A stretch of 64,000 bases of DNA from the NCBI GenBank assembly GCA_018398765.1, contig JAHBMJ010003212.1, positions 28,126-92,125 on the forward strand, given 5' to 3'. The position numbers were made by a program, and so were the translations under genes. The notes beneath the pieces were generated by a model, which did no database searches, was not told the DNA's origin, and saw only the letters and a list, made by a program, of their open reading frames with translations. The stretch is from Chromera velia (Eukaryota > Sar > Chromeraceae). Below, in pieces: positions 8,718 through 48,300 of the stretch. The stretch's first letter is position 1, and each line of letters starts with the position of its first letter.

Positions 8718-10394
8718 ATGGAGGGAGAGGAGGTTCCACCGGAGGCAGCCCCTTCATCCGCTTCTCCTCTGGATGTCATTCGGAAAGTGGCGGGCTATCT
8801 GATTGACGGGAAATGCTTCGACCTCTACTTGAGTGGACACTTCACAGACCTCGACTGCCTCAAAATGGTCTGTTTGTCTGAGTATCTCTTTCCGGCTTTC
8901 GTCTGATCTGTAAGTGGCCATCTTTCCCTCTCTTTCCGATATCTACCTTTTTCCGGTTGAATCGCATCCGAAAATGCAGACTGACTGTCCCCTGCAGTAT
9001 ATGATCGAAGAATGGGGGGGTGGGGGGGGGCGGACTGTCCGTCTGGTATCGTCTCCCTCCCACCTCTGTGACTGCACGCTCACCCCCCCAATGCGTTCTT
9101 TGTTCAATCCACGCACGTTCTCCGCATACCGCCCTCTTTGGCTTTGAGCCATGCGGTGCGTCTGAATTCGCCTGTTCCTCTCAAGTAGGAAGGGATCGGA
9201 AGAGGGCCGTGAGTGGATTGGTCCCTCGAGCTGGTTGGGGGCAGTCGCGAAGGAGAGAAGAAAAAGAAAGACGAAGGTGGCAAATCAATTTCCTGTCCCA
9301 TGCGTCTTTTCCCTACAATCTGCCCTTCCCCTTTCTCTCCTCCCTCCCTCCCTCCCTGCAACTGGATGCAGCGCTTTTCACATTCCTTCCCGCTCTCGCG
9401 GTTGAATCTTCGCCTCTCGGTCCTCTTCCTTCGATCCTTCCTTCTGCTTTCTGCAGTTGATCATCAACGGCCTCAATCTGGCCATGCTCGCAGGGGGGGC
9501 GATCGTGAAGGTGCCCCAACTCGTGAACATCTTCGCGTCAAAAAGCGTGTCGGGAATCAGCGAGACCTCACAGCTGATTGAGGTGAAAGGAAAGGGGGGG
9601 GTCTCTCTGGGGGGTCAATTCTTTCCTAGTGGCCGTGCCCTTTTCTGTCTCTGTCTATGCTTCTTGGTCCGTGCATTTTGGTAGTGATTATCATTCGTGC
9701 AAGTTGAGCAGGTGCTGTCCTTGTTTTCGTCGTGTCTGCATGCGGGAAGTTTTGCGTGTCGGTTTGTGCGACTGCTTTCGCGTCATTTCTTTTCTCACAC
9801 CAACTTCTCCGTGCATGGTTGCAGTTCTACTCAGCTGGCCTGACGGTTGCCTACAACTTGTTGGTGGGAAATCCTTTCAAGACTTGGGGGGAGATGGCCT
9901 TCATCAGTCAGTCCTCCGATGTCACTTTCATAATCTTTCATACAGAACATATAATACATACAGAAAGATTATGAAAGACTTGGGGGGGGNGGGGGGGGGG
10001 GGATGGCCTTCATCAGTCAGTCCTGCGATGCCACTTGGTCTTTTCTTCCTTGAGTCCTTTTGTTCAGTGTTTCGTGTGTGGAGGCATGGACACGAATTGA
10101 GAGAGTTGTTCAAGGGCACCGTCGAAAAGGAAAAAATGAAGATGAATGTTACACATGGAAGAGGGGGAGGGTTTTTCCCCCCCTCCGCGACACAGTCTCT
10201 CCCGTTTTTTTTTATTTTCTTTCTTTCTTTCTTTCTTTCTTTCTTTCCTTCCTTTTCTTTCTTTCCTTCCTTTTCTTTCTTTCTTTCTTTCTTTCTTTCT
10301 TTTTTTCTTTTCTTTCTTTTCTTTCTTTTCTTTCTCTTCTTTCTCTTCTTTCTTTTCTTTCTTTTCTTTCTTTTCTTTCTTTTCTTTTTTTTTT

Positions 10395-10428
<34 letters not shown>

Positions 10429-10517
10429 TTTCTTTCTTTCTTTCTTTCTTTTCTTTCTCTTCTTTCTCTTCTTTCTTTTCTTTCTTTTCTTTCTTTTCTT
10501 TCTTTTCTTTTTTTTTT

Positions 10518-10551
<34 letters not shown>

Positions 10552-13086
10552 TTTCTTTCTTTCTTTCTTTCTTCCTCGCCTTCCTTTCGTCGGTCCGTCC
10601 CTCTATCCGTCCGCCCTTCTTTCTTCTGTTTTTTTCTTTTCCAGCTCGGCTTTCTTTTTTTTCTCCCTCTTGTTGGTGTGTTGGGCTGCGAGGGAGCATG
10701 ATGGTTGGAAGAAAACGCGATACGGATTTCTTGCTGGTCTATGTGAAATTGCTGACTCACTCACTACCAATCAGGGGTCTTCACACCTTCAATAATATGC
10801 CTTCTTCTCTACTGTACGAATATACCAGTGCCCCCGTGCATACGTGCGCATGTGCAAACGAGTGCGTTATGTGTGTGCATGTGCGTTGTGACTGCATTCA
10901 TGTCTGCTTCCCCTCCCTTGTACGCATGCGTGAATGCAGCCGTGCAACAGGCGATCCTCATTCTGCAATATTGGTTGGTCCGTCAGTTAGCATTCTTTTT
11001 TGTTCTTCTGTCGGTCTGCTCTGCTTTCTACGCAGAAGGATGCAAGGTGGCGGCCGTTTTTTCATCTCCGCTACAGGAATACGCGCGCTCTCTCGATGAT
11101 GGATGAATGGATGGATGGATGGATGGATGGGTGGAGCCGAGTGTTTTGTTTGTTGACATGAATGAAGTAAATTTAGGTCTCTCTACTCAGATTGATTATT
11201 GCAAGGGCAAGCTATTGCCAATCGCAGCGCAGTGACTGCCGGTTTGGCTCTTGCCTTGCTTTGGTCTATGCATTCCCTCTCTGGTGCGAGTCATCAGACA
11301 GTTTTGTTGAAGTACTTTTTGGGTGAAAGCACGGACGGAGAAAGACAGAAAGACAGACAGAAAGAAAGGAATGAAGAAAGGGAAGGAAGGAAAAAAAAGA
11401 AAAAGAAAAGACAACCTGACCAATAGAAAAAATCTGCCTCTCCGTCAGTTCTCCTCCCCTCCCTGTAGCACACTTTGGAACGCGACAAGATGATTATCCA
11501 TCCCTTTGGTTAATTAATTTAATTGTGTGCGTGATCGATCGATCGAACCTCCCTTCCCCCGGCCCTCCATTTCTGCAGGTCGTATGCGAAGAAGGGCAAT
11601 TTGGTGTTGCGTGCTTCGTTCATCTTCTCCGTCGTGGGCATTGTGTATATCCTCCAGAATGGGCTCTTCCCGGAGGAGTACCTCTGGGCTCTCGGGCTCT
11701 CCCCCACGCCCATCAGTCAGCCCCCCCCCCCCCTCTCTCTCTCCCTGTGTCTGTGTCTGTATGAGTCGGTGTGTGGCAGGGTCAATGAGGAGCGTGTATG
11801 TGTGTGCATGCTCTTTTTCTTTGAGCTTATTGATTTTTCTGCATGAGACCACTGAACCCCTCTCTCTTCTCTTCTCTTCGATTCTGTGGACAGTCGCCGG
11901 GCCTTCTGGTCGCCTCTGTTTGTCCTTCTTCTTTCTCCTGCGGCACTTCTGGCTCCTCATAGGTCTCGGGCATCCATTCCCCCAAATTCATTCGATCAGA
12001 TGCCGTTGTTGTGGATCGAGCTGTGCTGCATGGGGGGGATTTGGGACCTCTTGCTTGGAGTCCTTCTTTCATGATGTGCACTTTGGTGGGGCTTCTTCCC
12101 TCCCTGCATGGCTTGCTCGGAGGGAGGCTCCCTCTTTGTGTCTTTGTGTCTCCAAGCAAAGATCCCCCCCCTCCCTCATTCATTCTAATGGCAAGATTTC
12201 ATCGTTGATTAATTTTCCTCTGCAGTTATTGTGGCTCGGATGCCGCAAGTGATCATGAACTTCCAACAAGGGCACACGGGTCGGTCTGTCTGTCTCTTCT
12301 TTTGTTTGTTGTTTGGTAGACTGACTGGGGGGGTGGGAGAGGGGGCAGAAAATGTCTTACATGGCTGGCAGGATGGGGCTGTTGTTTTCCGTGTCTTCGC
12401 TTGGGAAAGGGACAAACGACGCTTGTGGTTTCTCTTTCGTAGGAATGCCCATGCTCCCCTCTAGAGTTTCTTCGTATGGAAGAGAGAGGATCGATTGAAC
12501 ACAAAAATTGATGCAGAACCAGAAGGACATCATCCTGCTTGAGGGAGGAGCTGCGACATCCTTTCCATGTTATCAGCAGATCGACGTGATGATTGTCTGT
12601 CTGTGCATGTAAATATTCTTGCAGGGCTCCAGTCTGTGGTGACGGCGGCTGCGAACTTTTTGGGAAACATCGCGAGAGTGGCGACGACTCTAGCACAGGT
12701 TGACGACCCAGTTATGCTGGTGGGTCCATGGGGGGTTGGGGGTTCCTGGAATTATCTCTGTGAGTGTCTGTCTGGCAGATTTGTTGCGTCCGTCCTTTCC
12801 TCACTACTTCTCTGTTTCTGTTTTTTGACTCCGTCTCTGTCTCTGTCTGCTTGCTTGCTTGCTTACATTGTCGGCGTCTTGCTCCCTCCGTGACTCCAGG
12901 AGCAGCACACCAAGCACTTGATTGCGAACAAAGAAAGGTTTCGGGTACGGGGCGCACGCTTTTTTGAACCACGACATAGGACAACAATTCTCTCTCCTCA
13001 TGCATGAACGGCTGTGCGTCTGTCTTTCTGTCTCTCTGCCCTCTGGATCCACTGCCTTTGCTTGTGTCTTTCCCCCCTCTCTCTGC

Positions 13087-13123
<37 letters not shown>

Positions 13124-13645
13124 TGTGTGCGTGCGTCATCTGCCTGCAGACCTCCTACGTCGTCTGCACGGTCATCAACGGGGTTCTCTTCTTCCAGGTG
13201 GGTGAGTGGGTGGGCGCACTCGTATAGGGGGGGCTCTGTTTTGCTTCATGAACAGCGGGCAGTTGTGAGGAACGAACAGAGGAGGAGATCTGTGGTGCAG
13301 GTGGGAGGACAAGTGGAACTACTTCGCGAACGCATGAAATGACAAGTCCATGCAGAAAGAAGACATAAAGAAAAGTTGTTCAGCCCGGTAGGGGGGGTAA
13401 ATATTGATTCATCTACGTGCAGGTAGATGGTCTACCATTGAATTCTTCCGACTGCTTTATTTTTGGAAGTGTATGACCCACATTGTGATTGGCTCCTCTC
13501 GCCACCTTGTCTATCTGTCTGTCTGTCTGTCTGTCTTTCGCCATCATATACGTAGACTGTGCGTCTTGTCAGTGGCTTCATGTCGAGCTTGCTGGTTGTT
13601 CTCTCCATGCACAGTGGATCTTGAATTGACGCATGGCATATGCGT

Positions 13646-13679
<34 letters not shown>

Positions 13680-13764
13680 GATTGTTTTCTACTGGAGTGC
13701 CACGAAAGCCGTTCTTGCGAAAGAAAAAAAAGAAAAAGACAAGGAAAGCAAGAAGAAAAAATGA
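8718..13764 (+). CDS. MPDU1-like PQ-loop protein (dolichol-P-mannose utilisation), 12 exons
   Basis: Exons with consistent phases: 8718-8867, 9457-9582, 9825-9906, 10940-10981, 11206-11311, 11579-11715, 11894-11962, 12226-12279, 12625-12719, 12900-12944, 13150-13197 and 13681-13764 (TGA), giving about 345 aa. Exon 2 holds the first PQ-loop (VKVPQLVNIFASKSVSGISE), exon 3 NPFKTWGE, exon 8 the second loop (VARMPQVIMNFQQGHTG), and exon 9 a segment ending LAQVDDPVML. All align with eukaryotic MPDU1, an ER membrane protein needed for use of dolichol-phosphate mannose and glucose in N-glycan, O-mannose and GPI synthesis. The human protein is about 247 aa; the extra length lies mainly in exons 5-7 and in the tail. 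The C terminus is lysine-rich and ends KKKK, a KKxx-type ER retrieval signal. Small exons 4, 5 and 7 are placed mainly by phase and are less certain. Confidence 0.85.
9880..10036 (+). repeat. Direct duplication of an exon end around a hairpin (case A)
   Basis: The end of MPDU1 exon 3 and its donor region (about 9880-9925, GACTTGGGGGG then ATGGCCTTCATCAGTCAGTC) occurs again at 9977-10036, with a longer G run that contains an N. Between the copies is a perfect 14-bp hairpin: arm TTTCATAATCTTTC at 9926-9939, its reverse complement at 9963-9976, and a 23-nt loop. The upstream copy keeps the reading frame, so the second copy is intronic. Confidence 0.85.
10207..10574 (+). repeat. (TTTC)n/(TTTTC)n microsatellite in MPDU1 intron 3
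   Basis: About 370 bases consist of TTTC and TTTTC units with occasional TTCC, and include two nearly identical blocks in succession. It lies inside the intron from 9907 to 10939. The long poly-Phe/Ser and poly-Lys/Arg frames here are products of the repeat. Confidence 0.95.
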
Positions 13765-14340
13765 GCAAAGTAGCCCCGGAAAGAGCAAATCAATTGTACA
13801 GTCTAGAGTTAGTCTCAGTTGACTATGACTATGACTATGACGCGCCGTCGTTATCCATATCCAGAGCTAGCTGGATACTTCTCACGTTAGGCAGGGAAAA
13901 GTTAACATTTAAGTCGTTATTTTCTAGGACGCCGTCTCAGTTAGATATGAATTAATTGCAAATGATCATTCACAATCCTTTTGACAAGGATTTTGACAAC
14001 TTGAAACAGCTTGAGGTACAAAAACTGCCAAAACAGCTATGCATATATTGGGGCCTTTTTAGTGATTAGTGATTAGTGGTGCCCTAGAGCACTGTCACCG
14101 TTTTGTCTTATACAGGCTTGTTATTTGTTATAACTTACTAGGTTATATCACTAAACTAGCTATTGGTTATACTATTATTTTACTATATCAGCAAGTATAC
14201 ATAAGCATCAACGTTGCATTAAAAATGATATAGGGGCCATGAAAAAAATCAAAACCGAACGTACGGGTTGGAACTCCTCAGGGGGGGGGGAGGTCTATAG
14301 CCAACCCATGTTTATTTTTCTGGTGCTTTCCAGAACCCTA

Positions 14341-14655
14341 AAAAAAGTTATAGAAATGTCGTAGAAATCTTATAGAAGTGTCATAGAAATCTAGATAGAA
14401 ATCTAATAGAAATCCAATAGAAATCGATAGAAATCAGATAGAAATATCATAGAAATCTAACCCTAAAATTTCTATCTGATTTTTATCGATTTCTATTGGA
14501 TTTCTATTAGATTTCTAGAACATTTCTATAAGATTTCTATAACATTTGTATAATCTGATTTCTATGACATTTCTATCAGATTTCTATCGATTTCTATTGG
14601 ATTTCTATTAGATTTCTATGATATTTTTATAGAATTTCTATAACATTTCTATCAC
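14341..14655. repeat. Inverted array of TAGAAATC / GATTTCTA units
   Basis: From about 14350 to 14458 the motif ATAGAAATC recurs every 9-12 bases. From about 14468 to 14655 the complement GATTTCTAT recurs in the same manner. The core arms, 14391-14445 and 14468-14518, are near-perfect reverse complements around a short centre that reads TAACCCTAAAA. A second copy of the right arm follows at about 14570-14620. The single-stranded DNA could fold into a long hairpin. Confidence 0.85.
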
Positions 14656-15962
14656 TTTTTGTAGGGAAGTGAGGCCAAGTCGATGAAAACAGAGTGGCTA
14701 ATTTTCATCCCTAAGAGGTCCTTACTATTGCTTTGAGTCAGAATCTTGGGGGTGGTCTCTGTATAAGACTCCCAGGGGTGAGAAATTTCAGATTTTTTTT
14801 TTATCTGCCGTCTCTTCACAACTTGAATACTGTTCTCACCCCAATGGAAGATGTTCGACAAGCATTCTGGGATACTGTCAACCTAGGTTGTCAACAGGCT
14901 CCCAGCAGAACTTTCAGAGCTCGAAGTTAATAGTACCTTGAAAAAATGGAGCGCTGTGTATAAAAAATGTAAATCGGACGACGACTCGTCGTTGACGAGT
15001 TGAAAGGTCGATTTTTGAAGTTCAATGATGGTCGGGCGGCCGGAAATCTTGTGTCTGACACCCCACTTGAGGACCAAGTAGAAAGTGTTCTTTCCCATGT
15101 TTTGAAGGCTCTTCAGAAACCGACTGCAAGCAAAGATGCAAACATAGATCTCAAACAAAAAAGGGTTTTATAAGCGGTGGATGACGGCTTTGAAACAAAG
15201 TATATATAGCCGGACGTTTTCAATAGGATATTTAAGATCATTTGAGATATTGCTTATCAATAACATGGCATGGTGTGCAGGGCAGCCTCGAGATCATCTC
15301 CTTCGAAGGCTAGTTCGAAGGCCTCTTTTAACTGCAACTCTCTTTCTGGTATACAGACTCAAAAGCATGCAGTGGTTGGAACAATCACCATATATATCAT
15401 GAGTACAGGTCGTGCATCAATCAGCATCGGTTTGAGTGCATTTATAGATGCAAGACTCACTTTTCGTGTTGTGTTGTGAATCCCCAAATGGATAAAGTCC
15501 TTTATTGCAATGGCCGCGCCCTTTGAGTTTGGTGGAAGGTTTTTGAGTCCTAGGTGTTCAAGAAAGTTGATTGTGATCTGGTACAATGGGTCGCTGTATG
15601 CATGGATACATACCATTCAAGGAAAGATTCAGGAAAGACCTGCCATCTATGTAACAAACGAAAAATACACTCAGGATTGTGCAAGTCCTTGCTGATCCTC
15701 TCATGGTTTTAAAGTCAGCATATTGTAGAACGGGAACACGTTCCTCCAATTTGCTCCACAGCTCTGGCAAGTTTATTTTATACCTGTTGGCCTTCAAAAA
15801 GCTGTCTTATATGTTGGCCTTTTGACTGTTGATTTGATTGGAAGAAGAAAGACAGAGCAAGTTTGGGAGTTCACACTGGCTGGCCTTCATATAGCCAGGG
15901 AAGATAGCATGGTATCTGGAGATGGTTTCTAGATAGGGGGGTGATATCGGGGGGGGGGGGGC

Positions 15963-16868: not shown

Positions 16869-18625
16869 ATGCGTTTGGGAGTGCTTACCCTCTTCGGTCT
16901 CGTGACCGTTGTTCGGGGGGGAGTGATGGAAGATATCGCCAGTGGGACGTTTTCGATGAAACTGTTCGAGTCCGGCGTGGGTCTTGCAAACAAAAACGAA
17001 GATGGGATTGCGAAATTCACATCAGGAGTTGGGGGCATGTTGGGGGGTCTGAATAAACTGGATGGATTTCAGTCGGACGGTTTGAAGAAATTGGTGGAGG
17101 GCATGAAGGGACCGACACCAGGCAAACCCACAGTCCGAAAGAATATCTATTCTCTTGCCGAGCAGGAACGCGACGACTTCTTCACTCTCCTCAAGCTGAT
17201 GAAAAACACAACCGCAGAGGACGGCAGAGCCCGCTACGGGGAAGTCTTTGCCACTTACGACGAGGTACTGTGCCAAGAGTTTTTCTTTCAAGTACACTGT
17301 TGCTTGTTTGCGTGTTGGTACATCAATGCCACCTCTTCTCATGTCATGTCCACTTGCAGATTACCATTCAGCACGCATACGCTACTCTGGCATCTGACTG
17401 CGACAGAGGACACTTCGGACCGGTGGGTGAAGAGAAGAGATCCATGTTGGAAAAGTGACTGACCTTTTTTTCTCCATAACAGTGACTGACCTTTTTTCCC
17501 CCCTGTTGCATGCGCATGACCGGTCCTTTTCCTGTGGATAGCGGACCCAAGTGCACTATAGCTGAATCCCAAGGACAATAAATTGTCAGCTTGCACCTTT
17601 CATGGGTCCCTCACACTTCTAGTGCCCTCTCAGTGCCAATACATAAAGGTAGAAGATGTGTTTCCACCCCATGCAGATTTCCAACGTCCCCATGCAGGCT
17701 CCTCCCCCCATCTCCCCCATGCATGATTGGTGCAGGCCATGCCCTGGTTCCACCGCATCCTCACCAGGAGAGTCGAGATTGTCCTTGCCGCCATTGCGGA
17801 AGTGGAGGGACTGGAATTCCCAGGGATGCCCTACTGGGACTTTGTGGTCGGTTTCCTAAGAGAATGTGGTCTCTAGCTGTCGGATGGATGAAGCCCTCTT
17901 CCTCTGCGTGTTTGTGCATGTATTTGTGTGCTTCCAAGAGTACATCTTTGAGACTGGGGAGTCCCATGGGGTAGCACACTGATGGATCTAGACCTTGTGG
18001 AATGTCTGGTTGGGTACGTACAGGGAAGGAAAGCCAAAGTTTGCGTGCTTTGCTGTTTGCCGAGCGGTCTGACTGCCTGCCTGTCTGAAGTAGAAAACCA
18101 ACAGAAACATATAACAGAAAGAAAGAAAGGTATAGTCTGTCTGTCTCTCTATCCATCTGTCTGACTGGCCGACTTTCTGGCACCGCCAACTTGCGGGCTG
18201 CTGCCTTTGGGGGCCCGCCAGAGTGTGTGCGTCTGATTTTCCCAAAAAGTAAAGCAACTTGCATGGGTTGGATAGGGCGTTGACGGGTCGAGCACAATTG
18301 GATCTAAGTGACGTGACGTGGAGGGGATAGAGAGAGCGTTGAGGATGTCTCTTCACCCTTTGTGGAGTCGTGGCTCTCGTCTGCCTGCACTTGTGTTCAT
18401 TCATTCGGATTTCATGCAAAGAAGTTCTTCTGTTGATTGTGCATGGCATCCCTTGCATGGCTTGCAGGAGGATTTGAAGGCAGGCAAGTGGGAAGAGGCC
18501 AAGATCTTTTCGGTGGGTGAACTAAGCGACTCACCCTCCTTCAAAGTTTCTCCTCTTATTTGTCTCTTTCATATCTCTGCCTCAGTTTATCTATCTGTGC
18601 CTCTCTCTCTCTGTCTCTCCCTCCG

Positions 18626-18685
<60 letters not shown>

Positions 18686-18716
18686 TGTGTGTGTGTGCGT
18701 GTGTGTGTGCGTGTGC

Positions 18717-18784
<68 letters not shown>

Positions 18785-21133
18785 GGGTGGGTGGCTTTAA
18801 TTTGGTTCTTCTTTTTCTTTTTTGTGTTTTCTCGGGATCTCTTTTTTCCCTTCCTTTTGAGTGAATTTGAATTTTTTGATCTCTTATTCTTTCTTCTGGT
18901 GTTCTGTTTTCTTCTTTTTGGTCTTCTTTCCACCGCACATTCCTGTCTTGTTGGAGTTGTTTCTGAAACGTGCTGTCGCTTTGTTTGGTCTCTGTTGTCT
19001 CTTTGTTTATTTGCAGGACGACTACTTTGGAGGGGAGGGGGATCCCTCGGACAGTTGGCAGATTCAAAACGGACAGCTGGTAGATGGGTGGGAGATCTCG
19101 GAGAGCGACCATCCGAGGTTCAAAAACGCATTCGGACTGCTCAGGGCTCCCTACAACCCCAACAAAGCAAGAAAACTCACACGCAGGTGCGGCCAGTCTC
19201 TCTCAAGACATGATTCACTATTGAGACAGTAGTGGACGTGCACCAGTTTACGTTCACATCACCACATTGTCTGTACGTCCGGCCCTAAAGGGGTCCCTCT
19301 TCTGCTCGGGAGAATGAATGAAGACTGACTGAACGGAAATTACAGAAAGAAAGGATCCTTGCTTCACCTGCTGACACATTCATGAAGGGAGTGTTCTGGT
19401 CCAGGTTCTGGTCCAGATTGGGGGTCTTTCTATACACACACACACATACACAGACACATACACACACAAGTGCACGCACACTCACACAGACCTATATGTG
19501 TGCACATACGTGTGTACATGTTTGCTCAGGTTCAAGAGCTACTGCGGTGTCCCCTTCCCCGAGGTCACCTCCAGTGGCCAGGACGCGTGCGTCAAGTTGA
19601 AGCAGCCAGCTGGCGTGCTCGGGTTTCTGGCCTGTGCAGACCCGACGGTGCACTCCAGCCCCCACTTTGTGATCGGAGGTACCTGGAACTCCTCGGACGG
19701 AATCGACTGCTTTGCTCTTCAGGTATTTTGAATGTATTACCGAAATACAGGGTGCATGCCAAATACGTGCAGTCCAGAACATACTAGTATGTATTAATAG
19801 AAGAATGCGAAACTCTCCCTCCTACAATCGGTTCTCTTCAGAGAAAGTGGACTGGTCTATGTGAGCATGGACAGCTCGAGGACAGACGGACACGATGTAA
19901 CCCTTTTCGAGTGACCCTATTTGTTTCTGAAGTTTGTATCTCTCTCCCCAATTTATCCGGTCCTTGTGTGTGCGTTGTTCAGGTTCCTGCCTCATCTTTT
20001 CCAAAGGAAGAAGGTGACATCCTCGTGCTTGGGGGCACTCCTGGTCGGTTTGTTCTTTGCTTTTCCATAATTGCCAACAGCTGAGCGGAGAGGCTTTGTC
20101 CAGATCGTTCTGTCTGTTTTCTCACTTTCGATCTCGCTGCCCCCATTTCTCTTCATTTTCCGGGAAAGACTGTGGAAGCGCTAGCTACGATGGATCAACT
20201 GGCGTTGTGTCCCTGCAAAGCTGTAGAACGCAGAACAAATATGCGGTCAAGAGCCTTGTTCTGATCTGTGCATCCGTTCATGTACTTGCAAGTCTGTATG
20301 TGAATCTGTAACTATCTTCATATCCAGCCTTGTTCTGACATGTGCACTTGTACGTTTCTCTCTCTGCACGTGCCCGCAGGTCCCTATGTGGATCAGTGGG
20401 CCGCCGGGTGCGTGCAGTGCGACCCCTGTGCACCAGAGGCCGACCCGACAGAGTGCTTTTGCACGTACACGGCAGAAACAGAAAAGGAAGCCAAAGAGTC
20501 AGTTCAGAATCAGCATCCACGCGTGAATTGTCATTCTTTAAGTTTGCAAGGGGCAGGAGTTATCGGTTGAATAGCTGTACCTCCGCATGCATGACACACG
20601 GAAAAGAAGGTCAAGGGTTCTCGCAGTTTATATCCCTCTATTCAGGTACGATACAGAAGAAAACCACAGTAATTCCCTGACGTTCTCTGGTTGAACGTGC
20701 GTGTGAATCTGTGAACAGATCCCCCTCCTGTGAAGGTAGAATGCAAATTGTTTCTCTAATGTACGGAAAATCAACCGAACCACCTAAGCATGCACATGTA
20801 CGTACAACGCTTCGTGAGTGCGTGCGTGCATGCAGCTGTGTGGACATGCATTTACTTTCATACAGAATTCTGTATAAAAAAGAATTCTGTTTGAAAGTAA
20901 ATGCGTGCGTCAATGCAGCTGTGTGGACAACGCCCTCCTCTCGAAGGCCTTCCCCGTGTGGGGCCTGGGGGTGCTCGGGGACATGAGTGACAGGCCCACC
21001 GCCACCAACGACCCTCTCTTCTGGCTGCATCACGCCAACGTCTGTCCTGTCGGCCGTTCCGTTGAACTCCAACTGTGTACTTTCAAGGTGGAAGCTGCCT
21101 GCTCCTTTCTTATGTGTGCAGGTGTGCGTAAGG

Positions 21134-21182
<49 letters not shown>

Positions 21183-21967
21183 AGAGAAAGAGAAAGAAAA
21201 AAAGAGAAAGAAAGAAAGAAAGAAAAAGAAAGAACGAAAGAGGGAGGGGGGGAGGGGGGGGGCAGAGAGAGACAGAGACAGAAACAGAGAGCGTCTCTCT
21301 GTGTGTCTCTTTGCAGTTTGATAGAGCTTTCACAGCATGGCAGGTCCACAACGTTGAGCTTGCAAAGGCCTACTACGGCGCTCCCGACAAATGGCCTCTC
21401 CCGAAGCTGCGTGAGTGCTACGGACACGCCCTGGACGATGTGGTGAACTCAGAAGATCCGTTCATCAACGTCCTCGAGGACACACCGGCAGATGCGCCCC
21501 CCACACTCAGACAGATCATCGCAGCCACAGTGCCTGGGTGGACTTTGCCGTATGACTATGATGACCTTCCAGGTGAGAGCGAAAGGCCATGCGTGCATCC
21601 AAACATATCTGTACGGTATTTGCGTGGTTGCCCCACACATTTTGTAGTTAATTGCATATTTCTAAATGTGAATGCTGTAAATGAACACTTCTGACTCATG
21701 AGCTCGCCGTCACTGTTTCTCCAGTAACTTCGCTGACAGATGCGAAAGGAGCGCATTTGATTTGTATTCTCTCAGGCATTGTGCTTGTCCATCATTATTG
21801 CTTCGTCTGCTTGCATGCATTCATGTGCAGCTGGGATGACGGGAGTTCTCGAGAAGCAGCGCTCTGCCTTTGCCGAGAAGGGCGCGGGTCCTCTGGAGAC
21901 TCCCGCAGCTGCTGAGGGGGGGCAGTTGGACCTTTCCGGCCTCAAATTCAAGTTCCCTGGCAATTAG
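16869..21967 (+). CDS. Secreted tyrosinase-family copper oxidase, 12 exons
   Basis: Exons with matching phases: 16869-17264, 17360-17422, 17736-17846, 18468-18512, 19017-19186, 19530-19722, 19983-20043, 20380-20497, 20646-20681, 20919-21039, 21317-21572 and 21831-21967 (TAG), giving about 568 aa. The start [17 protein letters not shown] is a typical signal peptide. The CuA site is [14 protein letters not shown] and [13 protein letters not shown], followed by the family's YWDF. The CuB site is [11 protein letters not shown] plus [10 protein letters not shown] and FDRAFTAW. All six copper-binding histidines appear present, so it could oxidise phenols or diphenols. The unusual part is about 100 residues between the second and third CuB histidine regions, with six cysteines in [18 protein letters not shown]. 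Exon 9 (36 nt) is placed by phase. Substrate and physiological role are unknown. Confidence 0.88.
18628..18782 (+). repeat. (CT)n(TG)n microsatellite in a tyrosinase intron
   Basis: A CT run is followed by about 130 bases of TG repeat with a few CG and TA interruptions, inside intron 4. Poly-Val/Cys and His/Thr frames over it are not coding. Confidence 0.95.
20820..20930 (+). repeat. Duplicated splice acceptor around a 24-bp hairpin (case B)
   Basis: The string ATGCAGCTGTGTGGACA, with flanking TGCGTGCGT, occurs at about 20822-20846 and again at about 20904-20929. It contains the acceptor and first bases of tyrosinase exon 10. Between the copies is a hairpin with 24-bp arms (20848-20871 and 20881-20904, 23 of 24 paired, 9-nt loop) that contains TTTCATACAGAATTCT. 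Only the second copy leads into the conserved CuB frame. The first is an intact decoy acceptor 83 bases upstream. Confidence 0.9.
21135..21292 (+). repeat. GA-rich microsatellite before tyrosinase exon 11
   Basis: GAGA, GAAA and GGGA units fill the end of intron 10. The intron then switches to CT/TG just before the acceptor at 21316. Confidence 0.9.
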
Positions 21968-29560: not shown

Positions 29561-30533
29561 ATGGCGGTAGCGGAGGATGATTTTGTTTTTGAGTGGCCGG
29601 TGTTTCTTTCTCTCATCACTTATTCAGGAGTTGGACCTCCGGTTTGAGGCCATGAGATCCTCCGGTCTGGGGGGGCAGTCTGTGAATACATCCGAGACCG
29701 CCGTCAGGGCCACTCACCTCCCTCCAAGCTCTCGGTGGTCGTCAGAGAGAGCTCCTTGCAGATCGAAAACAGGAAAAAGGCCCTCACTCTAATTTGTACA
29801 CGTCTGTTTGAAAAGCAAAAGGCGCAGGAACAAGAGGTCAGTTAGACGGTGGGTAGGTGGCTTGGGCTGGGGTCAGGAGAGCGTCCCGTGGCAGTGTGTG
29901 TAACACTGTATGGATTCATTTTCATGTATGTATTTTCGTGTGTGTATGTATGTATGTATGTATGTATTCTGCATGTATGAAAATGAATCCATACAGGCTT
30001 GGGGTGGGGTCAGGAGAACGTCTCATGGCAGTGTGTATGGACGTGTTGAAAAATCTAGACAAAAAGCAGAATAAGGTCCCCCCGTAGAGTCTCTGTCTCT
30101 GTGTATATTTTTTTGCCACTGCTTGTACTTGAGGAAGTGTACGTGGTGGTCGGGGAGAGGAGGGCGCCCCTCTGTGTGCAGTCTTCGGTGACATGCGTAT
30201 GTGTTCATTGCGCTTGTGATGCGCTCTGACCAGAAACAAAACGCAACTCCGGACTCCTGACTTCTTTTCTTCCCTGGCTCTCTGCAGGCAAAGGCTTCCG
30301 AACGAGAGAAGCAGGTGATCGCTGGAGATCGGTCGGAAAAGCGCAGGACTTTCAACTTTTAGCATAATCGAGTGACAGATCATAAAGCCGGTACGAGCCA
30401 ACCTGACGTGAGAGCGTTCTTAGAAAGCGCAGAGGGGCTTTCCGACTTTTATGAAGTTCTTGAAGGCATTGAAAAGGAGGAAATTGTAGAACAGGCTGCA
30501 AAAAACGATTCTCAGTGCCTTTCGTGCATGTAA
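29561..30533 (+). pseudogene. Remnant of an organellar class-I peptide chain release factor (RF1-type)
   Basis: Three exons follow the RF1 order: 29561-29599 ([11 protein letters not shown]), 29628-29836 and 30288-30533. Exon 2 holds [20 protein letters not shown], the GGQ catalytic motif of class-I release factors. Exon 3 holds AGDRSEKRRTFNF and then NRVTDHKAG, the conserved motif after the GGQ domain. In bacteria and organelles such proteins release finished chains at stop codons. Two defects are visible: a one-base frame change in exon 2 after THLP, at about 29725, and an in-frame TAG at 30360-30362 where the family normally has proline. The frame stays open to TAA at 30531-30533 for more than 50 codons after that TAG. 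The codon-recognition half upstream was not found. Assembly errors could mimic a broken gene. The intron between exons 1 and 2 would be only 28 nt. Confidence 0.7.
29859..30038 (+). repeat. Direct duplication around a hairpin in the release-factor intron (case C)
   Basis: About 43 bases (GGCTTGGGCTGGGGTCAGGA, continuing through GGCAGTGTGT) at 29859-29902 recur at 29996-30038 with a few changes. Between them a perfect 19-bp inverted repeat (TGTATGGATTCATTTTCAT at 29907-29925, complement at 29977-29995) encloses a TATG microsatellite loop. Confidence 0.88.
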
Positions 30534-30954: not shown

Positions 30955-33935
30955 CGTAGGGATGTAGGCCCTCAGCTAGTCGTAGCTGGGATCAGCTCCT
31001 ATATACAGATAAAGGTTCTGTCATGCATGAGTAGTTCTGCTATCTCTGTTCTATAAGATAAACAACAGATGTCTTCATAGAGACTGCATGCTGCACAATT
31101 AATTCCCGGTATGCATGCATGCATGCGCCCTACGCACGTTATGCGCGCGTACTTCATTTCATCCTGACACAACTGTTTGTCAGACCTTCACAACGCTATG
31201 TGCCCCCTCCCTCTAGAGTGGCGTCTCGCCACTTCATCAGCATGAGGCAATTTGATCTCAAAAAGGTGCGGTCCATACAAAACGGTCTCGAATCTATGCA
31301 AGTCACCTCAAGTCATGTTCTCCTTCTTCCAGCTTTTACTGCTGATTAGGCTTATGATGACTGATTACAAAGCAGGCTCTCTTTTCTCATATGAAAAGCG
31401 GGATAAAGAATCGTTCACAGGATTTGAACCTGGGATGCAGCAGCACATGAGATGAATTGTTTCTCTAATTGGCTAATCCGTAGCTAATACAGCCACCTCT
31501 GCCTACTTCAACTCTTGCTCTCTCTTTTTCTGATCGATCTGAATGTTTGCCTTATTCCAGCCGTCATGCTACGCAAACAGAGTCTTCCCTTTCTAGCCAT
31601 CACTCACTGTCAGCTCTTCTTCTCTTCCTCTCTTTGCTCTGTCTCCTTAGACCTCTGAATGTCTGCCTTATTCCAGCCGTCATGATACGCAAACAGAGTC
31701 TTCCCTTTCTGGCCGTCACTCACTGTCAACTGTCAGCTCTTCTTCTCCTTCTCTCTATGCTTTCTTCTCTCACTGCCACCTGCTCTTCTGTCTCCTCCTT
31801 TCCTCTCTCACCAGTACCATGCCCCCTCCCTTCAACGCCACGCCCCGCGGCTGAGCGAAGGTACAAAACAATTGAAACGATCTCTGAAAAAAAAAAATTC
31901 CTGCCCAACGCAGGCGAGACGGGACCCCAGTATAGGCAAACAAAATCAAACAGACGCGCAAAACCAAAGCAACTGCACGTCCAAACAAAATGAAGGGATG
32001 TGGACGGACAGAAAAAGGAAAGCGTTGAAATGCGACTGTATTCCGTCTCCAACTCTGGCTCACACACTTCATAACATACATACACCCCTCAATGAAACGT
32101 TGCCATCGCATACTGTGCCCACAGTTCAGAGAAATACTTCTGGATGTATTCGTCGTGAGACAGTGTTTAGGTTTCTCCGGACTGGGCACCTCCTGCATCT
32201 CCCTTCATGCTCGGCGTCTCCACCCTGTCGCAGTAACAGATAGAGGCGAGTTGATACGTTTGCACATTCTTCCTCAGGGGAGGCGCTGCGCTCGAACCAA
32301 ACCCCCTTTTCCCTTGCGTATGACCCGTCTCCATGCTACTGCGAAGGTGTACTGACGTGATTCTGTATTGTTGCTCTCGAATTTCACGGGGGTCTCTAAG
32401 TTGGGGCACGGAGTTGCTGCTGAATCTCCCCCACTGCTCTTTCTCCCCCGTCGCTCTAAGACTTACTTGGTTTTCAAGAAGCGACGACTGCCTCTGCCTG
32501 AGAGCGTTGATTTCGGCTCTCTGAATCTCTTGCCTCTTCCACTCCTTTCGCTCCTCTTTCCTTCTTTTTCGGTCCTCCTGCACTGCAACCCTATCCCGTC
32601 TCTCTACTTGCACCTCTACACTCACTCCTTGAAGGGAGGCACCAAGATTTGTCTGGTGGCTATCCCCACGAGCCTGCCGGATGGTATTGATCTCTGCACG
32701 GTGCTTCACCTCCTTTTGCCTCTCTCTCTTTCTCTGTTGTTTCTCTCTCCTTCTCTTGGCTTTCCCCTTCCCAGCTGCTTCGGTTCTGCCGATCATCATC
32801 GGCATGGGTTCCATCACTGGGACGGGCTGGACCAGGCTGAATGACAGGGTTTCTTCACCGCTCGGGTCGTACATGTCAATGTCTCCCTGGTCAGTCGGTC
32901 AACCAGCATCAGAAGACGGCCCTTCCCAGACTTTTCCCTTTTCTTCTGCTTCTTTGGACGTCACCTGAGAGAAAGTACTCTGACCTCTATCTTCTCTCTC
33001 AACAGGCTCTTTCTGGGTGGACAGGTCCACTGGCGCACCAGGGACAGACCTCACGGGCCTCCAATCAGTTCTCCTGTGGGGACTTCTCTCCCGCCTCACA
33101 TCCATCTGCAACCGTTGCGATGCAGACAGGGGACTGTTATTGCTCCCTACTCTCCCTGAAGGTGTTGTTTGCTTCTTTGTGCTGCCGTCTACTAAGCCGC
33201 TTGCTTGTTTGCGGGCCCAGGCTCCAGCGGTCAACTTCTGACTCCTTCGGGTCTTCGACTTCTTCAAAATTCCCTCTGTATCGGCAGGGGATCTTCTCAA
33301 AGGTGACTGTGGATTCCTCTTTTCTGAAGGGGTGGCTGTGGAAGACCCGACTGCAGCCTCCACAAGATTCTCTGCGAGTGTTCTGCCTTCTGCCAGGAGG
33401 GCTTGACCGTTCTTTTGCACATGAAAGATGGAGATGTTCTTGAACCGGTCAAGAGCCTCAAGCAACAGAATAAAATTCCTGAACCGTTCTACTAGCGACA
33501 TGACTGCCAACTGACAAAGAAATTCAAAGGGCTCTGAAAAAGGTGGCTTCTACTGAATTGGACTTCCTACAGTGACCGCGTGCAAAGCTCAATCGACGAG
33601 CAATGTGACTGCAGCACGAAAAGCTGTTCGAACGATCAATCCGAAGAGAGCGCACGAACCGACTGAGGCTGGATCGTGTGCTCCACTGCCATGTAGGGAT
33701 GTAGGCCCTCAGCTAGTCGTAGCTAGGATCAGCTCCTACATACAGATAAAGGTTCTGTCATGCATGAGTAGTTCTGCTATCTCTGTTCTGTAAGACAACA
33801 ATGGATGTCTTCATAGAGACTGCATGCTACACAATTAATTCCCGGCATGCATGCATGCATGCGCCCTACGCACGTTATGCGCGCGTACTTCATTTCATCC
33901 TGACATAACTGCTTGTCAGACCTTTATAACGCTAT
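30955..33935 (-). mobile_element. LTR-retrotransposon-like fossil, minus orientation, about 3 kb
   Basis: Direct terminal repeats of about 245 bp lie at 30956-31200 and 33693-33936 and are about 95% identical by eye, so the insertion is not very old. GCTAAT flanks the element on both sides (30949-30954 and 33936-33941), a plausible 6-bp target duplication. In minus orientation a purine-rich tract (AGAGGGAGGGGG) abuts the downstream LTR, and TGGCAGTGG lies just inside the upstream LTR where a primer-binding site belongs. LTR ends are not the usual TG..CA. The interior carries one minus-strand coding region (about 33.5 to 32.2 kb) for a charged, coiled-coil-rich protein, possibly Gag-like. No reverse transcriptase or integrase is seen, so it is probably non-autonomous. 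As assembled the coding region looks broken about once. An internal 130-bp tandem duplication lies near 31.55-31.74 kb. Confidence 0.7.
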
Positions 33936-42300: not shown

Positions 42301-45300
42301 AAGGAACGAGTGGAGGTCTCCGACTGGGCCTCTGAGGTCGGTCGGTGGGTCAGTCGGTTTGTGAATGCATGGGGGGGGGATAGATGGAGGGTTTATTCCT
42401 AGTCCTTGCAAAGGAGTTGGTCAACCGTGGACAGCGGGCGGAAGCGTAGACTCCAGAAATCTCATCCTGATCATTGATTTTGATTCTGTATCTCTCTTTC
42501 TCTTTTAGTCTGGACAATTTGGCCTTTTCTTTTTCCTTCCTTTCCCTCTTGGGTGTTCACTCTTGCAGGTCTGCCCGAGCAACTCCGGTAAGTGTTTGTT
42601 TTCATACATATTTGAAAACAAAATAAAATTAAATATTAATATACGCATTCACTCTTGCAGGTCTGCCCGAGCAACTCCGGTAAGATGGTGGCGGTGATGT
42701 GCCGGAAGAAGCCTCTGGAGCTCTGTCTGTATGCACTCGACAAGGAAAGGCCCAACTTCCTCAAGGACACTCCCGGTAGGTGGGGGGAGAGGTTGTGTTC
42801 TTTGCGTGACACAGAGGTTGTGTTCTTTGCGTGACACGAAGATGCTTCCTCCCCCTTCTGTTGGAATAGGCTGGTTTGTGTTAGACGGGGTTTTTTCCGA
42901 ATGGTCCCGCTTTCTCCTTGCATGATTTTTTTTTTCTGCTCACTTGTGGGTCTACTTCTGTGTCCTTTGGTACCTGTCTGTGGAGGTTCCGCCCCGATGG
43001 CTTCTTTGCTTCCTGTTTGCTGCAGATGCCTCTGTATCCCTTGGCAGCATCGCCACGAGGGGAGAAGAAGAGTACGACAGTGTGTCGGTGTTGATTGTGT
43101 GGGCTGCTGATGACAGCCGTGTGTTCGCTCTGGTGTCAATTGAGGAAAAGAACGGGATTTGTGTGGTGGAGGTGGACAAAGAGAAGTTTGTGGAACCTCG
43201 ATTCCAGGATGCGGGTCTGTCTACATGAAGGGGGAATGAATCAAGGGGGGTGGAGACCCCAATTTATCACAGTTTCCCTCTCTGCCTCTCTGTCTCTTTG
43301 GCTGCGCCACATTCTCTCTCTCACACTCGCTTGCAGGCCCCTGCACTGATTCCTTTTTTCTTGTTCTCTCGATGTCGCTCTGCCCCTTCTCCCCTCATTG
43401 GCACTCTCTCTGCAGTAGGCAACAATCTCTCAGACTGGTTTGCATTCTGCGCTTTGTCTCTCTGTATTCCGATCGTGCCTCGCCATGGCATTTCCTTCCT
43501 TCTCTTTGTGCCTGCAGTGTCTGCTCCTGTGGTTGTGGATGTTGAGGACACCGTGGACTTCTCTCTGCTGACTGTGGCCAACAACAGGAACCAGGGGGAT
43601 GAGGAGCTCTACTTCCACACGGTGTTCGTGTCCCCGTGTGACAGGATTCTCTACGTGTCTGCATCCGTCAGTTTCTCAGAAAGACGGTAGTCAGACATGT
43701 TTGTCGTTCAGCGATCGAGTGAAGCGGAATTAAGAGAGAAGAGGAGAGACCCTTCCGTTGCCACGTGCGTGTCCTCTTGCACTCGTGTTCGTCTTTCTTT
43801 TCTTTTATCCAGCATGCTGTGTCCGTTTGTGAATGTCCTTTTTCTTCCTTCCTCCTTGCACTGTTCTTTCTACTTTTGCTCTAGTCTTGTTTGCTGCCTT
43901 GCCCATCGAAGCAGCCTCCACTCCCTTAAGGCCCCTCCTCTGGTGCCGAAAAAAAGAAAAAATGTTTAGTGATTCATTAGTCAACGCAAGTACGCGTGCC
44001 GATTTGCAGGAGGGATGCTTCTACCTGGACCCTGAGAACTTCAAAGAGAAGCAGGTGGAGAAGCTGGCAGACAAGCCTGCAGGCACCACGGCAGGCCAGC
44101 AAGGCACTAGTACAACCATCAAGACCCTAGAGCTCAAACCCTTCCCCTCAGACGTCTCGGTCATCTGGCCCTCCATCCCCTCGCCCGTAGCCTTCGACGC
44201 AGGTCTGCATGTGGCTCGGGAGAGACGCTTTCAATGAATACTACGGGGGAAAGGAAAGGAGTGGTGGTCTCTGCGTGGTTGGTTTCTTTCGATGGCATTT
44301 TCTCTCTCTGCATGTGCGGACCAACTGAGATTGCATCGCAAGGGTAGATGGAAACGAAGAAACCCGAAAGGAATTCATTCGACAATGAAAACGAGTTCAT
44401 GCGGTGCATGGGAGGGGTGGGAGAGAAAAGAGAAGGGAACGTCAATAGAAAAGAGAGGTAAATGGGGATAGAAAAGGGAGAGATCGACAGAGAGAAGGGG
44501 GGGAACAAGGTGAAGATGGAGTTTTCGCATCTGGATTATCTTTTTGCACATTGTGCTTTGCTTGCAGGTCTTCTGAGCGAGGATCAATTGGAGTGGTGTC
44601 AACATCAGTCGAAGGGATTCCTCAAGGGGACTGCTCTCGACGCCTCTTTGAAGAATCCTGTGCCGATCATCTTCGCCAACTGCGGAGAGAAGGTGTTGGT
44701 CTACGACCAAAACCACGAGACCTTCCAGGAAATGCCCCAAGTAGAGACGGTGCAACTCCGTCAGCGTCGTGTTGTCCTAGGCCCCCCTCTCGGCAGACCC
44801 CTTCCGGATACAGACGGGGAGGGGAAGCCTCAGGTGGCAAAGAAGAGATCCAGTTTCTCTTCCTCCTGGTCGTCCGATGGATACATGATGACCCACAGAG
44901 ACAAGACACAACCAGACGCATTCCTGCGGAGAGTGGTGGACATCAGCACGTCAAATGATGGCAGGTCGGTCGGAATGTTGTCTTCGGGGGCAGGTTTTGT
45001 CTAATGAAGAGTGAGGGGTCTGTCTTTTCCACTTTCTTCCTCTGTCCCTTCCTTTTTTTCTCTTCGTCCCTCCCTCCTTTGATCTTTCTTCTCTACTTCA
45101 ACGGTGCATACCCTACTTATCTGTCTGTCTGTGTGTCGCTTCCTTCGTTCAGGTTTTTCGTTCGTTGGACAGACGCCCAACGGCTCCTGATGGCCGTCTG
45201 GAAGTTCCCAGCAGATCGCAGAGAGGAGTACCAGAAACTCGGGTTGGCACCCTGTACGGTGTCTGGCACAGCAACGGCAGATGTGAAGGAGCTGTGGAAG

Positions 45301-48300
45301 GGCAAATGCTCCCACGACAAGTGCAGCAGGGGACTGGAGGGGGAGACGCCGCAGTGCTGCTACAGATGCAGAAAACTGTACTGCGCCTTTCACACTCTTA
45401 AGGTAGGCTGGAAGGGATTGATTGGAATGGCCTGTCTGCTTTTTTTCTTTGCATCAAGCAGGCTGTCTCATTTTCTTTCAGGTGCTTTTTCAACGCATTC
45501 TCTTCAATTGATTCCTTGGGTTTCCTGAGCTCGTTCTTGTCTTCACGAAACCAGTCAGTCCATCGAAATGCTTTTGGTCACTTCAGAAAGTTCCGAGCCA
45601 GATGAGACAAACGCCTGTGCCTGCCTTTCATGATCATTGCCTGCTTTCATTTCAGGTGAAGGACGTGATGATCGACCTTCCCGATTTTGCGGACCCGAGG
45701 GAAGGTGAAACCAGAGAGGTGTACACGAAGGTGGCAGACATCGCCCTGACCAACCCCCTGATGGCTCTGGAATTCACAACCAAGTGGAGGGGGGAACCGA
45801 CGGGAAAGCTCAGGCTGCGTCTCTTCAGGTGTGTGCGTCTTTCATGAAGTGAAAGAAAATGCATGTTGACTCAAGGAGTTCTTCTTCTCCGCTCCTGGAC
45901 TTGAAGTGTCTCGATCCACAGGACAGAATGAATACACATATTCCAATCCCCTGTATTCCACTTTGGGCCTTACATGGAATCAGGACCCCTTCAGCAACGT
46001 CAACGGCAGCAGCACGCAAAGCCCACGAGTCGAGATTGAGGGATGATGCATCTGTCGATCTATGGATGTGTTTGTTCAAAGTCATGAAGTCCTGCCTGGT
46101 GAACAAGCAAGCCCCTTCCTCTTCCACCCCCTTCTCCCCCTGCAGATACGAGAAGAAAAAAAAAAAAAAAACTTTTTCTTTTTTCTTTTCCCCCCTTCTC
46201 CCCCTGCAGATATGAGAAAGAGAAGATGGCCCTGCAGGAAGTGGAGAGACTCCAGCAGGAGATTGACCTCACAAAGGAGACCCCAAGTCAGGACGAGACA
46301 TCCATCACAGTCACCCTGCCCTCCACAGATTCCCTGGTTGCCAACGCACGACCGGGGGATCTCCTGAGGATCGTGCAGAGGCAGGGGAGGGGACTGCACA
46401 TGGAGGAGACGAAACTGAGGCTGACTGTGGGGGCGACGGAGGTGTGTTCGATGAACGACGCCCCGCATCCCCTGGAGAGAAAGCAGAAAGGGGCGGGGGG
46501 GGCAGCAGACGTGCCAGCGTTCTCGACGTCAGACGCCAGGGACGCCCCCCCGAAGGTGTGGATGTGCAGACGCAAACACGTGCTGGAGGAGAGAAACGTG
46601 AACAGATACCATTCCTGTGACATCTGCAGAAGGAGTATCGTCGAGGGTGTTGCCAAACGATGCAACGCGTCAGTGCTCTCTCTCTCTGTTTTCGTTGTCT
46701 TTGTTATTGTGCTTTTTTGTGTGACATTCAGAGCCCCTTCCTTGATCAGTAGAGAGGAAAGAGGGTACGAGGAGGACCCAGGCCGAGACGGGATGAGGTG
46801 TCACTCTGCACTTTGTCATGGGTTGGTTGACCTTTGTCTCCCATTCCTGCAGACACCTTTTTGTGTTCAGTCCTCCTGCATTGTTTGGCCTTCTCTCTCT
46901 TGGTCTGCGAGGGTTTCGATTTCTTCTGAGCAGCAGAGAATGAATGCATCACTATTCTCATCTTCTCCTTGTGCATGTGCAGATGTGACTATGACGTGTG
47001 TCGGAAGTGCACGTCTGTGAAGGACCAGTTCGTGTGCGACAACGGCCACAGGACCTGCAAAGTCCTCATCCCTGCCTCCTCAGTCCAGCCTCAGGCAACG
47101 ACTGTGAAAGAGAAGAACAGCTCAGGAAAGAGACAGTCGGACAATCTGGGTGCATGGAGCTCCCCCATCACCCCTGCCGAGCCTGCCGAGAGTCCCTTGC
47201 AGCCCTGGCGCGTTGCGCTTCCTGCTGTCGTCTATGAGGACGTTGAGAAGAGGGCAGTTGAGGTCTTCACTCGGAACGACGCAGAGGAATTCGACTCCGA
47301 CGAGGAGGACGAGGACGATAACAGCGACGATGACGGAAACACCGCACAGCCGAAACAGGACGGCATAGTAGTAGGGTCGAATCCCAACCAGTTGTCGGTT
47401 GGGGCAGCAGAGAAGGCCCAAGCAGGGGGGACTGCACAGGGGCCGCCCTCGAAGAAGCCGAAGAGCGAGGGAAGCCAGATGGAGAACTACAAACCTCCTG
47501 CACAACCCATGTGGGAACTCTTCAGAAGAATTGCAGGTCGGTCGGAGTGAAGAGGCTTTTTTTTTCTGGCGGTTGTTTGAAGCAGTGCCCAGCGAGTGTG
47601 TTTGAGCCCTTCTCAAAAATCTTCTTTCAAAGGATTGCTTTTGATTTTCTCAGAAATGATGCAGCTGGCCGTCCTTTCCTTTGCAAGTGTGAAGGCGAAT
47701 GTAGACCCAAGTGATCTCTTGCTTTGTGCTTCTCACTGTCGATTTAAGAAAAGGAAAAGGAAGAGAGGCATGCAGAGGATCAAATTTCGTTCTCAATTTT
47801 AGAAATTCACAGGGGTCCCTCCCTCTCTGTCTCTCCCTCCATCCCTCCTTCCATCCCTGACTCCCAGTCCCTCTAGCTGTTGGCACGCCTGGGGAGGGAG
47901 GGAGGGATGTGTGAGTAGAGTTTGATTGCCTCGTCTCCCTTCTTGTTATTCTTTTCCTTTCTCCTTCGTTCAGGCATGCCTCTCGTTGAGGCCGCAACCT
48001 TCTACGTGATCCCCCACATGGAGTCTGACTCTTCCGGCACATTCTTCAGGTCGATAGGCTGCTTAGATGTCTGCATGGACAATTCTTCTTCGTCTGCAGA
48101 ATTTGACTTCATGTGGAGATGCTCCTTTTGTTTTTCACGTCTGGGTCGTCGGCCTTTATGTCGACACTTGGGTCTTTTTTTGCGTTCTCTCTGATTTCCG
48201 CTCCACTTGATGGGTGCAGGCTGGATGCTGAGTCTTTTTTGCGTTCTGTGCTCATCCGGACCCCCATCTGTTGTCTTTTGTGTCCTGTCGTCTGGTCTTT

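What the first reader, a model, noticed from the sequence alone, without database searches (positions are those of the whole stretch)
9880..46216. A recurrent structure: direct duplications of 25-45 bp, each split by a short hairpin, mostly at splice sites
Five places (9880-10036, 20820-20930, 29859-30038, 42556-42684, 46126-46218) share one architecture: a host sequence present twice in direct orientation, with a short inverted repeat filling the space between. Four of the five duplicated segments contain a splice acceptor or donor of a host gene. In those four the copy next to the conserved exon keeps the frame. Hairpins at 9926, 20848 and 42596 share TTTCATA, and at 20858 and 42599 the longer TTTCATAC; the one at 29907 has TTTTCAT. 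This is seen in the sequence. Inference: either a tiny hairpin element that makes very long target duplications, or a break-repair process that copies a flank and folds back. Dinoflagellate introners also carry inverted and direct repeats, but with short duplications. If general, this could create alternative acceptors, micro-exons and new introns.
Basis: partly seen in the sequence, partly recalled or inferred. Interest (0 to 1): 0.85.

Follow-up and report, generated by a model that had tools for sequence, protein, structure and literature searches.

The report
Short template copies inserted with duplications
The genome of the alga Chromera velia carries many tiny insertions that look like one or two copies of the same 40-odd-letter sequence pasted into a break, each flanked by an unusually long duplicate of the host DNA and often at an exon edge, which points to a little-known way of patching or invading genes.

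Summary
All five duplications exist. Three spacers (9.9, 20.8, 29.9 kb) clearly belong to one genome-wide family, 42.6 kb is borderline, and 46.1 kb is not separable from chance. The organism is Chromera velia CCMP2878. The 20.8-kb example finds 39 other places; of 45 family rows tested, 44 have host duplications beyond the 99% null. Duplications are 17-83 bp, median 39. Hairpins with 8-bp arms number 452 against 3 in the reversed control.

The hairpin is probably not the unit. Inserts read as copies of one ~43-nt template T on one or both sides, truncated or restarted. L070 has one tail, a 45-bp duplication and no palindrome. In 7 of 9 contigs read, copies reaching GCGC stop there or two bases on. 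Host/tail junctions show excess microhomology.

Best reading: templated extension of one or both 3' ends of a staggered break, then joining. Splice-site motifs are enriched about 4-7 fold in duplications, partly confounded by TGCA priming. Enzyme, template type and source are unknown.

The parts
9886..9927 (+). Site 1, duplication copy 1 (42 bp)
9928..9994 (+). Site 1, insert; family member, inverted repeat 9925-9977, followed by a G run with one N
9995..10036 (+). Site 1, duplication copy 2
20819..20846 (+). Site 2, duplication copy 1 (28 bp), with acceptor TGCAG
20847..20901 (+). Site 2, insert, best family match in the window
20902..20929 (+). Site 2, duplication copy 2; AG at 20917-20918, exon of the tyrosinase gene starts at 20919
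16869..21964 (+). Host gene of site 2: predicted tyrosinase copper-binding protein P0001 (556 aa), mapped exon by exon
29859..29899 (+). Site 3, duplication copy 1 (41 bp)
29900..29995 (+). Site 3, insert with 20-bp arms (start variant TGGATTCATTTTCAT) and a TATG-repeat centre
29996..30036 (+). Site 3, duplication copy 2
42556..42592 (+). Site 4, duplication copy 1 (37 bp, identical), TTGCAG inside and GTAAG at its end
42593..42647 (+). Site 4, insert, borderline family likeness (p=0.055)
42648..42684 (+). Site 4, duplication copy 2, next to the open frame
46127..46154 (+). Site 5, duplication copy 1 (28 bp), CTGCAG inside
46155..46190 (+). Site 5, A-run/T-run spacer; not distinguishable from chance as hairpin or as family member
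46191..46218 (+). Site 5, duplication copy 2, next to the open frame

Best explanation
These are insertions made at staggered breaks. Two nicks on opposite strands some 20-80 nt apart leave complementary 3' overhangs (inferred from the duplications). One or both 3' ends are extended by copying one short template T, about 43 nt, TGCATGCATTTACTTTCATACAGAATTCTTTTTCAGGGAGCGC. The start is set by a few bases of pairing between the host end and the TGCATGCA side of T; copying stops early, at the GCGC end, or restarts at the repeated TTTCA. The two tails, the same sequence on opposite strands, are joined near self-complementary GAATTC or GAGCGCTC, and the overhangs are filled in. Result: duplication, arm, reversed arm, duplication; with only one end extended, a non-palindromic insert. 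Shown: insert composition, duplications, junction microhomology, the stop at GCGC in the loci read. Inferred: order of steps, overhang polarity, and that T is an RNA copied by a reverse transcriptase; a DNA template copied by a repair polymerase is not excluded. The enrichment at exon edges is probably part priming by TGCA near acceptors and part selection, because a duplicated acceptor or donor leaves one intact copy.
For: Duplications in 44 of 45 family rows, 17-83 bp, median 39 of 49. L070: one 36-nt tail, 45-bp duplication at 98%, no palindrome; L064, L071, L074: second tail short or nearly absent; L012: a long tail beside a very short one. 7 of 9 contigs read stop at GCGC or GCGCTC with different continuations (9 of the 19 contigs listed were read). 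L021 repeats CTTTCATACAGAATTCTTTT within one insert. Microhomology 1.87 against 0.61, sd 0.15, none of 2000 shuffles above 1.15, 52 of 68 junctions usable. Precedents: 43-bp 3' overhangs give small tandem duplications in mouse cells (PMC8355091, passages); telomerase RNA is copied into breaks in vertebrates (PMC8537989, passages).
Against: No source locus or RNA for T was found and no enzyme is identified. Arms of one insert share their start variant more than shuffled arms do (19 of 36 against 11.2), which a palindromic donor would also give. L070-type single tails could be later deletions. Only 9 of 19 GCGC contigs were read. Different start variants (L064, L071, site 3) imply more than one template. 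Polarity of the overhang is not observed.
Confidence: 0.55

Rival explanations
1. A palindromic non-autonomous DNA element (MITE- or foldback-like, a perfect palindrome of T) is inserted by an unknown enzyme that makes very long variable duplications; its unstable centre is later deleted or rearranged, giving unequal arms.
For: Most inserts read are inverted repeats; complete palindromic units occur in L066 and L073; the two arms share a start variant above chance.
Against: Single-tail L070 and nearly single-tail L064, L071, L074; stopping within two bases of the centre in 7 of 9 contigs is not expected of random centre deletions; duplication length varies 17-83 bp, whereas the introner families cited in PMC9860276 have 3-9 bp (passages).
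Confidence: 0.25
2. Template switching by host repair or replication polymerases: the nascent strand leaves the host, copies a T-like DNA stretch elsewhere, and returns some 40 bp upstream. T is only the most favoured of many fillers and no dedicated mobile element exists.
For: Junction microhomology; complex serial inserts such as L004 and L066; duplications whose spacer is not T, such as site 5 and other pairs in the duplication-first scan.
Against: One sequence recurs 352 times as an exact 20-mer against 0 in the control, with the same start side and the same end; ordinary filler should be diverse.
Confidence: 0.15
3. Chance repeats or assembly artefact.
For: Short-read assembly (PMC4501334, passages); the region is rich in simple repeats; site 5 is not separable from chance; a first hairpin-first scan was only weakly above control (8 rows, 3 of them simple repeats, against 1-6 per control run).
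Against: 225 against 1 and 452 against 3 in pattern controls; 44 of 45 family rows beat the null.
Confidence: 0.03

Closest known systems
Introners (Micromonas, Aureococcus, Symbiodinium; Amoebophrya introner elements)
   Same: Short non-autonomous inserts with inverted repeats and direct repeats in genes, often at splice junctions (PMC9860276, PMC7789003, passages).
   Different: There the direct repeats are 3-9 bp or 3-5 nt; here 17-83 bp. Here the insert is one or two copies of a 43-nt unit and intron function is not shown. The word Chromera does not occur in the main text of PMC9860276.
Telomerase RNA copied at breaks (TERC-ITS)
   Same: Short templated inserts at break sites; one Xenopus locus has two head-to-head repeat stretches (PMC8537989, passages).
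   Different: No telomere repeat is evident in T; here long duplications and hundreds of copies or more. The word duplication does not occur in that paper's main text.
LINE-type target-primed reverse transcription, including twin priming
   Same: Variable duplications, microhomology at junctions, inversions through two priming events (twin priming: recalled and search listings only).
   Different: Both tails start at the same end of a very short template; no LINE whose end matches T was found or looked for.
Penelope-like elements
   Same: Inverted repeats with palindromes attributed to self-priming (PMC3846280, passages).
   Different: Duplications of 8-10 bp or none in the passages read; large elements; one GIY-YIG match in this genome.
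Small tandem duplications by CST/Pol alpha-primase fill-in
   Same: Complementary 3' overhangs of about 43-50 bp give duplications of similar size (PMC8355091, passages).
   Different: That explains the duplication, not the recurrent T insert.

Membership tests
Introner (DNA-transposon type) | Short target duplication (3-9 bp) | tested here: not met
   17-83 bp, median 39, n=49
Introner (DNA-transposon type) | Insert carries or recruits splice sites and is spliced as an intron | tested here: inconclusive
   At 20.8 kb the predicted protein uses the acceptor in copy 2, consistent with the insert lying in an existing intron; splice motifs enriched; no RNA data
MITE / foldback element | Terminal inverted repeats in every copy | tested here: not met
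   L070 has one arm only; L064, L071, L074, L012 have a short or nearly absent second arm
MITE / foldback element | Fixed short duplication from a DDE transposase | tested here: not met
Retroelement inserted by target-primed reverse transcription | Variable duplications and microhomology at the priming junction | tested here: met
Retroelement inserted by target-primed reverse transcription | RNA intermediate and source gene | not tested
Retroelement inserted by target-primed reverse transcription | Reverse transcriptases present in the genome | tested here: met
   RVT_1: 150 matches scored of 1759 candidates; none is linked to T
Penelope-like element (GIY-YIG type) | GIY-YIG endonuclease reverse transcriptases in number | tested here: inconclusive
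   one GIY-YIG match of 14 candidates; only the best candidates are scored and frames are read without introns
TERC-ITS (telomerase at breaks) | Telomere repeat or telomerase RNA sequence in the insert | not tested
   Chromera telomerase RNA not at hand; no telomere-like repeat is evident in T by eye

The most novel reading that the evidence does not exclude
Chromera velia has a telomerase-like end-tagging activity: a small dedicated RNA with a template of about 43 nt and a hard boundary at GCGC is copied, sometimes reiteratively, onto one or both 3' ends of staggered breaks that tend to fall at exon edges. Thousands of scars were left and splice sites duplicated along the way, so that break repair itself becomes a source of exon-intron change.
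Probability: 0.3. Interest if true: 0.92.

Novelty: new variant of a known kind. Interest (0 to 1): 0.77.

Why it matters
If the two-tail reading holds, an interspersed 'hairpin element' is really the scar of templated repair with one short template, something between retrotransposition and telomerase-style end healing. Overhang length, priming and template end could then be read from many natural events. It also gives a concrete route by which acceptors and donors get duplicated, a question in intron evolution that this genome would make testable, and it warns that inverted-repeat inserts need not be DNA transposons.

Tried and rejected
Searching with the 42.5-kb or 9.9-kb site found only the site itself. 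A hairpin-first scan of the window plus 20 contig starts (238 kb, 177 hairpins) gave 8 rows: four window sites, L021 and three repeat-rich rows in L015, against 1-6 (mean 2.3) per random-position control run; too weak alone, so the duplication-first scan and the family search were used. An earlier version of that scan gave self-matches and is not used. Fold-back of the flank was rejected. I suspected L059 to be a tyrosinase paralogue with an insert at the same place; tblastn found no such match. L002 and L059 share target letters with the query because the query held them. Open frames of 120 nt or more after TGCAG: 23 of 27 in duplications against 74% of 992 genomic TGCAG, not a clear separation. 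The protein search for the 39.3-47.5-kb gene with a hand-joined query found nothing, as did Pfam for five window frames. The exact 20-mer TTTACTTTCATACAGAATTC is absent from viral contigs and from the bacterial/archaeal collection (near relatives may be left out there). Rfam at gathering scores finds nothing in the window.

Rows dropped before counts: one search dropped the 9.9-kb site (N); of its 49 rows four are not family members (L023, L072 at 2498, window 4325, window 55749); L066, with several hairpins, fails that test though a 15-bp exact duplication flanks it. L053 and L062 are not among those rows; L053 shows a 34-bp duplication, L062 none by that script but one by eye. Of 49 duplications, five were delimited by hand (L002, L031, L047, L062, L066) and one is site 5. 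leave out tandem arrays and several complex loci. One search's 46 rows contain a mis-delimited L012 and site 3 twice, so its tallies are rough; L012 was redone. One search's count of 19 of 41 inserts with an internal restart includes rows whose arm simply begins so; about a dozen look like real restarts by eye.

Full report
What was checked. The five places were read; each carries a 28-42-bp direct duplication around a 36-96-bp spacer. Tests against shuffled spacers support family membership at 9.9, 20.8 and 29.9 kb, leave 42.6 kb borderline and do not support 46.1 kb.

Where it is. The window is part of a 177.8-Mb assembly in 4040 contigs. A gene at 16.9-22.0 kb matches a UniRef protein of Chromera velia CCMP2878, P0001. 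Mapping P0001 on the window puts an exon start at 20919, right after the AG in duplication copy 2 (the shared codon was read by eye). So the insert and copy 1 lie at the 3' end of an intron and the predicted reading frame is unharmed. P0001 is a predicted protein, not RNA evidence.

It is a genome-wide family. Searching with 20760-20990 returned 92 match segments at 40 places including the window, with 40 of 161 candidates scored, so a lower bound. The pattern CTTTCATAC, 8-38 bases, GTATGAAAG occurs 225 times against 1 for the reversed control; with 8-bp arms and a 6-36-base gap, 452 against 3. The 20-mer TTTACTTTCATACAGAATTC occurs 352 times against 0. These counts include nested and tandem matches. 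Twenty contig starts (175 kb without N, chosen by contig number) hold three family inserts inside duplications: L012, L014 and L021. That scales to about 3000 per genome, Poisson range about 630-8900; adding three of the window's sites gives 6 in 238 kb, about 4500 (1600-9700), but the window was chosen for this finding.

The duplications are real. Loci L002-L008 and L031-L062 (39 places) were fetched for likeness to the 20.8-kb site and L063-L074 for the pattern GAATTCTTTTTCAGGGAGCGC; none was chosen for a duplication. Flanks of the same insert were compared with flanks of different inserts (2352 pairs; 99th percentile 24.0, 99.9th 45.5, maximum 118). Of 49 rows 45 exceed the 99th percentile and 36 the 99.9th; of the 45 rows that are family members, 44 exceed the 99th. 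Lengths are 17-83 bp, median 39, n=49. Identity between copies averages 0.95 and 9 of 37 are perfect. Tandem arrays of duplication plus insert were read in L002, L008, L031 and L047; evenly spaced 20-mers on C656 (five, 86 bp apart) and C630 (three, 97-98 bp) suggest more, but those were not read.

The hairpin is two tails. Aligned to T from both sides, tails end anywhere from none to T45; by a rough tally 28 of 46 rows have both tails to T25 or beyond and 15 only one. The clearest cases reach the end of T (25 matches on 19 contigs, of which 9 contigs were read). L070 is a single 36-nt tail between 45-bp duplications of 98% identity. L064 has a full first tail and about seven T bases in the second. 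L071 and L074 have hardly any second tail. Seven of the nine contigs stop at GCGC or GCGCTC before other sequence; L066 and L073 run into a reverse copy, as two complete tails joined at GAGCGCTC would. L021 repeats CTTTCATACAGAATTCTTTT within one insert, and about a dozen inserts contain an internal TTTTTCATACA, the look of a restart at the repeated TTTCA (and by eye). L066 holds several units in one insert.

Junctions. In nearly all of 37 inserts listed the TGCATGCA side of T faces the host on both sides. Overlap between host and T at 52 usable junctions of 68 averages 1.87 bases against 0.61 (sd 0.15) after shuffling hosts; no shuffle of 2000 exceeded 1.15. TGCATGC is reached on the right in 13 and on the left in 9 of 37, next to unrelated host sequence, so it was not copied from the flank.

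Splice sites. TGCAG in either orientation is in 19 of 49 duplications (22 of 49 if copy 1 is read) against 10.6% of random windows (p=2e-7); with 6 bases trimmed from each end, 15 of 47 against 7.5% (p=1e-6). The donor-like GGTRNGT is in 8 of 49 against 2.5% (p=2e-5), 4 of 47 trimmed by 6 (p=0.007) and 2 of 42 trimmed by 8 (p=0.15). TGCA followed by another base is also raised, 21 of 49 against 17.1% (p=2e-5), so part of the acceptor signal may be priming at TGCA. Without the window, L002 and L059 the counts are 15 and 8 of 42 (all). Motifs are not gene models; only the acceptor at 20919 is backed by a predicted protein.

Mechanism and rivals. The data fit templated extension of one or both ends of a staggered break. 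Two facts temper this: arms of one insert share their start variant above chance (19 of 36 against 11.2; but 17 of 23 rows with a non-consensus arm differ between arms), and no source locus was found. A palindromic DNA element with later loss of its centre is the main rival. Reverse transcriptases are plentiful (150 scored of 1759 candidates); one GIY-YIG match was found. None is linked to T.

Literature. I saw passages of PMC4501334, PMC9860276, PMC7789003, PMC3846280, PMC11167929 (one passage), PMC8537989 and PMC8355091, the abstract of PMC11782384, and only a listing of PMC2246262. Nine searches showed in their listed rows no paper describing this in Chromera; they list only the top rows, and most subscription papers are outside the library.

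Noticed in passing
window 31538-31612 / 31654-31728: A 75-bp direct duplication at 95% identity with a 41-bp spacer that is neither a hairpin nor T-like.
   Followed up: partly
window 59468-59491 / 59521-59544: A 24-bp duplication ending in TGCA with a 29-bp spacer that is not T-like (p=0.13); perhaps the same kind of event with another filler.
   Followed up: partly
G000 contigs C656:7308-7671, C630:30696-30910, C90:37737-38065, C13:41153-41348, C164:25008-25275: Evenly spaced family matches (86, 97-98, 103, 80 and 107 bp apart), probably tandem arrays of duplication plus insert; not read.
   Followed up: no
L007 about 1450-1610: The duplication ends in GCAG|GT and the insert begins ACGTAAG and ends TACAG, so it could in principle be spliced as a new intron.
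   Followed up: no
L064, L071, window 29900-29995: A start variant, (A/T)TGGATTCA..TTTTCAT instead of GCATTTACTTTCAT, suggests more than one source template.
   Followed up: no
template T, TTTACTTTCATACAG: The T arm itself looks like a 3' splice site (pyrimidine-rich, ending CAG), and its reverse holds GTATGAAAG, donor-like; read by eye.
   Followed up: no
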